60,666 nt of DNA, from IMG/VR virus record IMGVR_UViG_3300020453_000488, positions 1 through 60,666 of that record; one strand, written 5' to 3'. The position numbers and the translations under genes are program-made. Shown here one piece after another: positions 17,614 through 18,850 of this stretch; position 1 is the stretch's first letter; every line of letters starts with the position of its first letter. Under the pieces are notes generated by a model. The model saw nothing but the letters and a program-made list of their open reading frames with translations, was not told where the DNA came from and did not search any database. Source of the stretch: a virus.

Positions 17614-17808
17614 ATGACAACAAAACAAATATATAATTTACTGAAAGATGTAAGTGAAGGTTATGTCACACCTGAAAGAGCATTGACACAACTATGCAAA
17701 GATGACAAACAAACAAAACCCAAGATGGGTAATATAGAAGCTTGCTTCCAAGAAGCAGCAATGGATCATATGTTCAATGAACTTAATGATTTTGAACAAG
17801 GAATATAA
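17614..17808 (+). CDS. small helical protein just upstream of the giant RNA
   Basis: 64 residues beginning MTTKQIYNLLKDVSEG, with an acidic C-terminus (AMDHMFNELNDFEQGI). The frame is open further upstream to 17425, but that extension is hydrophobic, covers the structured leader and is not protein-like, so I start at 17614. Its stop codon is only seven bases before the first stem of the large structured RNA, so both may be on one transcript. No family recognised. Confidence 0.55.
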   Translation: MTTKQIYNLLKDVSEGYVTPERALTQLCKDDKQTKPKMGNIEACFQEAAMDHMFNELNDFEQGI

Positions 17809-17814
17809 TAATAA

Positions 17815-18678
17815 TTCTAGGCAGTTAAATAAAAGAGCCTATAGCCAAGTAAGATATAAGTCGTTATGACATTTAGTATAGCATTATTTGTGCCTAGAAA
17901 TTGTTATTAAAAAGTATTGGTCAGCCTTCGTGGCCATAAGGATAAACCAGCAATGGGATAAAAGAGAGTTGAATATGGAATAGACTCTCTGATGCAGCAA
18001 TGCATTTCACTGAAAGGTATCGTAACATCTATGTTATGGTGTATCAAATCCTCTTGAGGTGATACAGTAGCATAGACAATCAGACAGGCTGGTTGTTGAG
18101 ATGGAAACATCAATAAGCGTTATGATAGGTAATGGTAGTATGATCTCACCGGATCAAAAGCTGTTATTAGAATTTTATCTAGTTGCTAGTAGAAATACTG
18201 TGACAATAGATTTAAAACAATGATTAATGGGGAGGCCCATGAAAGTAGGTAGAAGTTATAGTCTAAACCGGTCAAAAGCTGGCATGATTATATAAACTTT
18301 ACGTGTCTTCTACTACTAACCTGAATCCTTTTAACAGAACGCCAATGAAAGTTCAATAACTAAAAGCAAAATTAACGTAGAGGCTATTGTATGTGGGAGA
18401 TACCCCAACAATACACTTATCCTGTTGTAATATACAGGTGCAGATAAAGCTCGCAAGGCCTAATGTAAATGAATCAAGTAAAATTTATCTAGGAGAGGTG
18501 GTTCTCTCTTAATCCTGCCAAGGAAGTTAGTTTGAAAGTGAAGTTATGTCTATAATAGCAGTGATGGCGGACATCTTAATCCGTGTGTATTCTAAGTACA
18601 TGCAGTAATGCATAGTGTGAATTGAGTCAGAAATGGCAAATATAAACTTAGAATAAAGGGCCACATTCTCAACCCTTT
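17815..18678 (+). ncRNA. giant ornate structured non-coding RNA (GOLLD/ROOL-like candidate or new class)
   Basis: About 864 bases with no credible reading frame but many clean stems. From 5' to 3': TTCTAGGCA 17815-17823 / TGCCTAGAA 17891-17899. TTGGT 17917-17921 / ACCAG 17946-17950 enclosing GCC/GGC. AGAGAGT 17963-17969 / ACTCTCT 17984-17990. ATGCA/TGCAT at 17992-18005. CGTAAC 18021-18026 / GTTATG 18033-18038. TGTATCA 18040-18046 / TGATACA 18060-18066 with an inner CCTC/GAGG. GATG-GAAA-CATC 18100-18111. TGATC/GATCA 18141-18156. AGTA-GAAA-TACT 18188-18199. ATGGG/CCCAT 18227-18240. AGTAGGTAGAAG 18244-18255 / CTTCTACTACT 18307-18317. TATTGT 18385-18390 / ACAATA 18408-18413. AGATAAA 18442-18448 / TTTATCT 18484-18490. 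GAGAG/CTCTC 18493-18508. ATGCA-GTAA-TGCAT 18600-18613. TATTCTAAGT 18588-18597 / ACTTAGAATA 18646-18655. A final AAAGGG 18655-18660 / CCCTTT 18673-18678 terminator-like hairpin is followed by a T-rich stretch. Three hairpins end in GNRA loops. G+C in counted 60-base lines is 33-38%, against 23% in a counted coding line. Size, loops and phage setting recall GOLLD and ROOL RNAs; membership is untested. Confidence 0.72.
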
Positions 18679-18700
18679 GTTTATTTTAAACCAAAACGTT

Positions 18701-18850
18701 ATGAAAAAAAAACCACTAAAAGTAATTAAGGTTACTATGCAAGAAGTATATGATGCAATGAAACCTTCCGTTCATAAGAACAAAAAGAAATACTCACGTA
18801 AAACAAAACATAGAAATCATGAAGAAAAAAACAACTCAGAGAATTTGTAA
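18701..18850 (+). CDS. 49-residue basic protein
   Basis: Begins MKKKPLKVIKVTMQEVYDAM and ends in a very Lys/Arg/His-rich tail (HKNKKKYSRKTKHRNHEEK). It is the first gene after the giant RNA, starting 22 bases past its terminal hairpin. High basic charge would suit RNA or DNA binding, possibly of the adjacent RNA, but that is speculation. It overlaps the next gene's start by 32 bases. Confidence 0.5.
   Translation: MKKKPLKVIKVTMQEVYDAMKPSVHKNKKKYSRKTKHRNHEEKNNSENL

What the first reader, a model, noticed from the sequence alone, without database searches (positions are those of the whole stretch)
17815..18678. A roughly 0.86 kb giant structured non-coding RNA at the head of the early region
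Seen: no credible frame on either strand over about 860 bases. More than fifteen stems of 4-11 pairs are nested in order. They include a closing 9-pair stem at the 5' end, a 10-pair stem at the 3' end (18588-18597/18646-18655), a bulged 11-pair stem (18244-18255/18307-18317), and hairpins capped by GAAA or GTAA loops at 18100, 18188 and 18600. A final AAAGGG/CCCTTT hairpin and T-rich tail look like a terminator. G+C is higher than in coding lines nearby. Known: GOLLD and ROOL are giant ornate phage RNAs of about 0.6-0.9 kb that form large multimeric cages. Inference: this is a member of, or an analogue to, those classes in a Bacteroidota phage.
Basis: partly seen in the sequence, partly recalled or inferred. 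Interest (0 to 1): 0.9.

Follow-up and report, generated by a model that had tools for sequence, protein, structure and literature searches.

The report
Divergent GOLLD giant RNA in phage
The phage encodes a roughly 0.86-kilobase folded RNA that is a distant relative of GOLLD, a phage RNA known to assemble into hollow cages, and the same RNA turns up in crAss-like phages and in giant Lak phages of Prevotella.

Summary
Window 17815-18678 has no credible gene, folds better than 20 of 20 shuffles, and its stems show compensatory changes. The RNA is a divergent homologue of GOLLD. Rfam's GOLLD model aligns end to end at 18248-18676 (37.1 bits, E 4.8e-8 for 1 kb searched), far below the gathering score of 150. 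Nine of 16 relatives score 68-132 bits, and 54 of 84 mapped Rfam pairs recur exactly in a fold predicted without GOLLD. I collected copies from 56 other viral contigs. On 37 copies, window included, 148 of 173 pairs change on both sides, and an 8-pair pseudoknot covaries. The 5' domain matches three GOLLDs weakly but at the expected place. Carriers include crAss-like relatives, 412 kb phages and 15 Lak records. Neighbouring genes differ between phages, so it is probably a stand-alone RNA. By analogy with GOLLD I expect a homo-oligomeric cage; untested.

The parts
17815..18678 (+). whole RNA gene as proposed; conserved part starts near 17912
   Evidence: ORF-free, copies in 56 other contigs, conservation, covarying stems
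17815..17899 (+). 9-pair stem TTCTAGGCA/TGCCTAGAA at the 5' end; conservation elsewhere not shown
   Evidence: sequence; poor conservation
17912..18247 (+). 5' domain (cap domain by analogy with GOLLD)
   Evidence: conservation; model R2; covarying pairs
17941..17962 (+). highly conserved stretch, ATAAACC-GNRA hairpin-GG.ATAAA
   Evidence: pattern scan; conserved columns; similar stretch in three GOLLDs
18100..18111 (+). hairpin with GAAA loop, 5' domain
   Evidence: covarying pairs 18101/18110, 18102/18109, 18103/18108 (the first also)
18188..18199 (+). second hairpin with GAAA loop, 5' domain
   Evidence: covarying pairs 18188/18199, 18189/18198, 18190/18197 (the second also)
18148..18236 (+). 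candidate kissing interaction 18148-18151 with 18233-18236 (intra- or intermolecular not distinguishable; only the two middle pairs are standard in the window itself)
   Evidence: score 74.1 against null maximum 38.1 in 30 nulls; 87.8% of cells paired
18248..18676 (+). 3' domain matching Rfam GOLLD model positions 1-416 of 416 (ring domain by analogy)
18248..18314 (+). first 3'-domain arm with UCAAAAG loop
   Evidence: covarying, agrees with Rfam pairs
18297..18382 (+). pseudoknot helix 18297-18304 with 18375-18382 closing the variable linker
   Evidence: inner four pairs score 132.9 against null maximum 38.1; 8 of 8 pairs with double changes, 89.0% of cells paired
18315..18374 (+). variable A-rich linker (by analogy with the disordered linker inside the GOLLD cage)
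   Evidence: low conservation; PMC12286853 passages
18411..18590 (+). 3' core: closing helix 18411-18416/18585-18590, hairpin 18421-18438, CGCAAGG hairpin 18448-18460
18591..18652 (+). stem 18591-18596/18647-18652 with nested hairpin 18597-18617
18655..18691 (+). terminal hairpin (also the last hairpin of the GOLLD model) and T-rich tail; probable intrinsic terminator (inference)
   Evidence: covariation; tail sequence

Best explanation
The region encodes a stand-alone structured RNA homologous to GOLLD, clearly in the 3' domain and probably in the 5' domain. Shown here: a conserved two-part fold, compensatory evolution, a significant full-length match to the GOLLD model, and variable gene neighbourhoods. 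Inferred: it is transcribed from the plus strand with its neighbours or from its own promoter and ends at the terminal hairpin. It then folds into a 5' cap domain and a 3' ring domain with a variable linker, and self-assembles into a symmetric RNA-only cage, as published for GOLLD env-38 (14-mer). The cage is made in bulk during lytic growth and most likely holds or sequesters a molecule that the phage wants kept apart (tRNA, ribosome-related, or cargo bound by the linker). I put about 0.7 on cage formation and about 0.3 on sequestration as its purpose. The confidence below is for homology to GOLLD.
For: Rfam GOLLD match end to end. 9 of 16 relatives at 68-132 bits and 79 bits in a 412 kb phage. 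A profile from the 19 group-2 copies hits the window at E 4.1e-66 and the reversed window only at 2.7. 54 of 84 mapped Rfam pairs recur exactly, 63 within one base, 0 after shifting. Covariation: 12 significant pairs in an all-against-all test on 51 copies, 11 of 12 complementary in at least 80% of copies; 64 of 161 fold pairs against 0-1 significant pairs in 12 null alignments; 148 of 173 pairs with double changes and 1259 double-changed cells, 0 of 500 shuffles as high. The 5' model's three best hits outside the family lie about 406-443 nt upstream of GOLLD 3' domains, right strand. Neighbours fall in 36 clusters of 56 (downstream) and 42 of 58 (upstream), 51 and 52 of them co-oriented.
Against: The window scores 37.1 bits against a gathering score of 150 and is missed in gathering mode; the record-wide family search missed its near-twins G001 and G002 and matched only 6 of 50 records at E up to 1. 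7 of 16 loci scanned gave no GOLLD match at E 0.001, among them L145, a near-twin of the window; L166 and the Lak copy L211 gave none at E 0.01. Sequence profiles of this family and of 22 other GOLLD loci (4 verified, 18 found by a hairpin pattern) do not find each other, and model R1 finds none of the 22. The 5' match is weak (E 0.026-0.42), with one similar score at a wrong place (L232, E 0.36). Covariation in the window's own group alone gives 1 significant pair. Tests 34, 35 and 102 use a fold predicted from the same sequences, and the reverse-strand fold of the alignment covaries too (57 of 118 pairs). No tRNA in the window. No expression or structure data.
Confidence: 0.88

Rival explanations
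1. A giant structured RNA that works like GOLLD but is not homologous to it; the Rfam match reflects convergent short motifs (CGCAAGG, UCAAAAG, A-rich linker).
For: Score far below gathering; no sequence-profile match to 22 other GOLLD loci either way; R1 finds none of them.
Against: End-to-end alignment of the 416-position model with E down to 1.3e-34 in relatives, 54 of 84 pairs exact, 5' module at the right distance in three loci.
Confidence: 0.07
2. A cis-acting leader that regulates the genes downstream of it.
For: Co-oriented with the downstream gene in 51 of 56 loci.
Against: Downstream genes fall in 36 clusters of 56, upstream in 42 of 58; a terminal hairpin and T-rich tail follow the RNA in the window.
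Confidence: 0.04
3. A decayed or frameshifted protein gene.
For: A 68 aa minus-strand ORF lies inside.
Against: ORF lengths as in shuffles and no strong three-base pattern of change; change on both sides in 148 of 173 pairs.
Confidence: 0.01

Closest known systems
GOLLD RNA (Rfam RF02032; cryo-EM 14-mer cage, PMC12286853, outline and passages seen)
   Same: Two parts of similar size (here up to 433 and 429 nt; env-38 residues 1-420 and 421-833), full-length 3'-domain model match, agreeing helices, variable linker after the first 3' arm, phage-borne, GAAA loops in the 5' domain.
ROOL RNA
   Same: Size class, phage origin, ornate fold and (PMC12286853 passages) cage formation.
   Different: No ROOL match at E up to 10 in the region.
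ICP1 abundant ~800 nt noncoding transcript (PMC7567579, one passage seen)
   Same: ORF-less, about 0.8 kb, phage without tRNAs.
   Different: Not compared by sequence here.

Membership tests
GOLLD (RF02032) | score at or above Rfam's gathering cut-off of 150 bits | tested here: not met
   37.1 bits in the window, best relative 132. This is an annotation threshold; I therefore call the RNA a divergent GOLLD homologue below Rfam's cut-off and do not file it as an Rfam member.
GOLLD (RF02032) | conserved 3' region: significant full-length alignment to the model | tested here: met
   model 1-416/416, E 4.8e-8; 9 of 16 relatives at E 1.7e-15 or better, 7 of 16 none at E 0.001
GOLLD (RF02032) | same helices in the 3' region | tested here: met
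   74 of 84 mapped pairs standard in the window; 54 exact in the independent fold; the 10-pair bracket helix and two short helices not recovered exactly
GOLLD (RF02032) | less conserved 5' region related to that of other GOLLDs | tested here: inconclusive
   weak hits in L212, L215, L221 at the expected place; none at E up to 1 in L213, L214, L217
GOLLD (RF02032) | length about or above 800 nt, in phages | tested here: met
   864 nt as proposed; conserved part 769 nt in the window and 705-868 nt in the 37 copies; all but L216 from virus records
GOLLD (RF02032) | often near tRNA genes (typical, not defining) | tested here: not met
   0 tRNA in the 60.7 kb window; present near some relatives
GOLLD (RF02032) | homo-14-mer cage with intermolecular contacts | not testable with these tools
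   needs purified RNA
ROOL | match to the Rfam ROOL model | tested here: not met
   no match at E up to 10
twister ribozyme (for the downstream element of relatives, not in the window) | match to Rfam twister-P1 or P5 | tested here: not met
   0 of 26 records at E up to 10 for each model

The most novel reading that the evidence does not exclude
This is a large, unrecognised GOLLD clade of Bacteroidota phages whose exact 3' end matters so much that different phages secure it by interchangeable means directly after the terminal hairpin: a terminator, a tRNA cut by RNase P, a Pistol ribozyme, or a still unnamed self-cleaving element with twister-like layout.
Probability: 0.3. Interest if true: 0.82.

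Novelty: new variant of a known kind. Interest (0 to 1): 0.64.

Why it matters
GOLLD's function is unknown although its cage structure is solved. A divergent clade in crAss-like phages and in 15 Lak megaphage records gives a wider, independent set of sequences for testing which cage contacts are conserved, and brings the question to gut-phage systems. It also shows that Rfam's cut-off leaves part of this RNA's relatives unannotated. Ribozymes or tRNAs right after the 3' end in some phages suggest that a precise end is needed, which can be tested directly.

Tried and rejected
Rfam at gathering scores finds nothing in the window. blastn of the window RNA against named phages: no match. A profile of 22 other GOLLD loci against the family, and the reverse: no significant match. 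R1 on those 22: none. R1 on 74 loci, most of them relatives without a known copy: only L036, L005 and a weak L190, so the long ORF-free stretches in L013, L017, L032, L049 and L056 are not shown to be GOLLD. A single-sequence test of the linker pseudoknot was weak (7 of 25 family copies and 2 of 9 others at p 0.05, one further copy without a site); I rely on the covariation instead. The reverse-strand fold of the alignment is weaker (118 pairs, -116.5, against 161 pairs, -174.1) but also covaries (57 pairs), as expected from the same columns. Coding and leader explanations rejected. Twister models do not match the downstream element. blastn with L194 and L160 copies gave only short matches to other phages, not followed.

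Full report
Observation. The stretch 17815-18678 lies between plus-strand ORFs, has no credible frame, and folds to -225 kcal/mol, better than 20 of 20 shuffles (z -3.74). Those from about 17919 to 18678 are supported by relatives; the 9-pair stem at the very 5' end is not, because 17815-17911 is poorly conserved. The window is a virus record of 60,666 bases. The longest records of relatives found by helicase and terminase are about 108-128 kb, so the window is probably about half of such a genome. Its terminase matches 135 phage records, all below 60% identity; the best listed are crAss-type phages at about 25%.

What it is. At gathering scores Rfam finds nothing in the window. With E-values on 17750-18760, GOLLD (RF02032) aligns over all 416 model positions at 18248-18676, plus strand, 37.1 bits, E 4.8e-8; the other three matches have E 0.21 or worse. 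In 50 records of relatives 6 had a match at E up to 1, four of them strong (132, 104, 83 and 45.7 bits, E 5.2e-38 to 1.7e-12). In a scan of 16 loci, 9 matched over the full model at 68-132 bits (E 1.3e-34 to 1.7e-15) and 7 did not at E 0.001. A copy in a 412 kb phage scored 79 bits, while L166 and Lak-A1 gave none in the same call. None of the family reached 150 bits.

Relatives. blastn in the loci found the RNA at 98 and 97% identity in L003 and L002 and at 66% over part of it in L062. Two degenerate motifs from conserved stretches found 58 and 39 stretches of viral contigs. With a few mismatches allowed, both motifs occur on one strand 420-561 nt apart in 65 sequences held; 57 remain after dropping 8 that repeat a contig or the window, the window itself being one of them. 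Some of the 57 are near-identical. These counts are selected by the motifs. In the set not selected for the RNA, the 56 helicase loci, a profile of the 57 finds it in 4 (L002, L003, L005, L036); over all 216 loci then held, 82 match at E 0.001, partial copies and repeats of one contig counted. A profile from the 19 group-2 copies alone finds the window at 17912-18692, E 4.1e-66, while the reversed window gives 2.7.

Compensatory evolution. With a null that keeps tree and substitutions (my own script in the style of R-scape), an all-against-all test on 51 copies gives 12 significant pairs, 11 of them complementary in at least 80% of copies, in both domains; group 1 alone (18 copies) gives 1. 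RNAalifold on 49 copies gives 161 pairs of which 64 covary significantly; 12 null alignments folded the same way give 0-8 pairs and 0-1 significant. In the union of two folds 69 of 211 pairs are significant. A separate alignment used 37 copies: 40 were left after thinning at 90% identity, and L185 and L156 (cut off) and L194 (divergent) were dropped. On it the count tool finds 87.2% of cells paired, 148 of 173 pairs with changes on both sides and 1259 double-changed cells (shuffles 411; 0 of 500 as high); sliding partners drops pairing to 37-47%. Some predicted helices fail (helices 1, 11, 21 and 39, at most 50% paired). Two non-nested helices stand above the maximum of 30 nulls, 38.1: 18301-18304/18375-18378 (132.9), extendable to 8 pairs, and 18148-18151/18233-18236 (74.1); they are 89.0 and 87.8% paired.

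Agreement with GOLLD. The Rfam pairs were mapped to the window through the alignment, less one stretch that the output does not show: 92 pairs, 84 mapped, 74 standard in the window. Of the 84, 54 are exactly and 63 within one base in the fold that was predicted from the family without GOLLD; shifting by 5 to 12 bases gives 0. Sequence profiles of the family and of 22 other GOLLD loci do not find one another, nor does model R1 of the 3' core find any of the 22. Of these 22, four (L212-L215) score 188-287 bits in Rfam and 18 were found by a GOLLD hairpin pattern and not checked further. Model R2 of the 5' module gives L212, L215 and L221 among its best hits outside the family (24.7, 20.9, 18.9 bits; E 0.026, 0.16, 0.42), with L232 at a wrong place between them (19.2 bits, E 0.36). 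The hits lie 424 and 443 nt upstream of the GOLLD 3' domain in L212 and L215, and about 406 in L221, judged by a hairpin shared with L214. The alignments share AUAAACC-GNRA hairpin-GG.AUAAAGUG...UUGCGG. Together this supports homology of the 3' domain firmly and of the 5' domain tentatively.

Who carries it. The window's terminase has a relative in 31 of 50 RNA-bearing records, from 97 down to 23% identity; not in the 409-412 kb records, the 187 and 249 kb records, Lak-A1 or a number of shorter contigs, which may be fragments. The copy in the 249 kb record (L209) matches 15 named records, all Prevotella Lak phages, over its full length at 90-100%. L005 is telling: its terminase is 76% identical to the window's, yet its RNA scores low against the family profile, above all in the 5' part, which suggests replacement of one GOLLD-type RNA by another (inference). 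One genome contig, from a MAG labelled Alphaproteobacteria, also holds a copy; I suspect a mis-binned phage.

How it may work. Neighbouring genes differ: 36 clusters in 56 downstream and 42 in 58 upstream, 51 and 52 of them on the RNA's strand. That favours a trans-acting RNA made within operons. For GOLLD env-38 a 14-mer cage is published, with the 5' domains as caps, the 3' domains as rings and a variable linker inside (PMC12286853, outline and passages seen). The window RNA has the same division (5' part to 18247, 3' part 18248-18676, variable linker 18315-18374), so I expect a cage. Its cargo is unknown; the paper's authors mention tRNAs, ribosomes, metabolites and stress proteins. A prophage GOLLD was reported to accumulate during lytic infection yet be dispensable for phage production (passage in PMC7567579), which fits a supporting role.

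3' ends. Around the end of the terminal hairpin (its last 6 bases and the next 16), 31 of 55 copies with enough sequence have a run of four or more T; the 12 bases after the hairpin hold 5.24 T on average against 4.02 background, and the window reads TTTGTTTATTTT. A tRNA begins 9-10 nt after the GOLLD match in L214 and L212 and 14 nt after it in L203 by Rfam, though ARAGORN did not call that one; ARAGORN calls one right after the RNA in L141. A Pistol ribozyme above cut-off is in 5 of 50 RNA-bearing records: 5 nt after the GOLLD match in L189 and L152, a few hundred nt farther in L149, L182 and L165; L210 has one by profile. That these set the 3' end is inference.

Novelty. No paper in the searched library holds GOLLD, Bacteroid and phage together; for GOLLD with crAss 67 papers matched by word start and the 10 listed are plant papers. 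Most subscription journals are not in that library, and the 806 GOLLD sequences collected for PMC12286853 may include some of these. I rate it a new variant of a known kind.

Noticed in passing
In 29 short copies 98.1% of cells pair over 22 pairs, the hairpin has double changes in 5 of 5 pairs and the loop-tail pseudoknot has one double change. Rfam's best match in L155 4780-5220 is a snoRNA at E 1.9; twister-P1 and P5 do not match in 26 records. The layout resembles a twister ribozyme as I recall it.
   Followed up: partly
L189:2050-2111, L152:3451-3512 (minus), L149:4605-4666, L165:1434-1498, L182:1979-2040 (minus), L210:603-664: Pistol ribozymes downstream of the GOLLD-like RNA on the same strand.
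   Followed up: partly
L013:1111-2117, L017:1035-1783, L032:2174-3034, L049:1631-2712, L056:3729-4636: Long ORF-free stretches upstream of the helicase in relatives without a detected GOLLD-like RNA; possibly other large RNAs.
   Followed up: no
records G098, G088, G099, G105 (loci L153, L194, L190, L179): Terminase genes with 1 to 11 in-frame TAG codons, suggesting recoded phages among the carriers.
   Followed up: no
L201:3945-4300, L203:3318-3772: Phages of about 412 kb carry a tmRNA and several tRNAs beside the GOLLD-like RNA.
   Followed up: no
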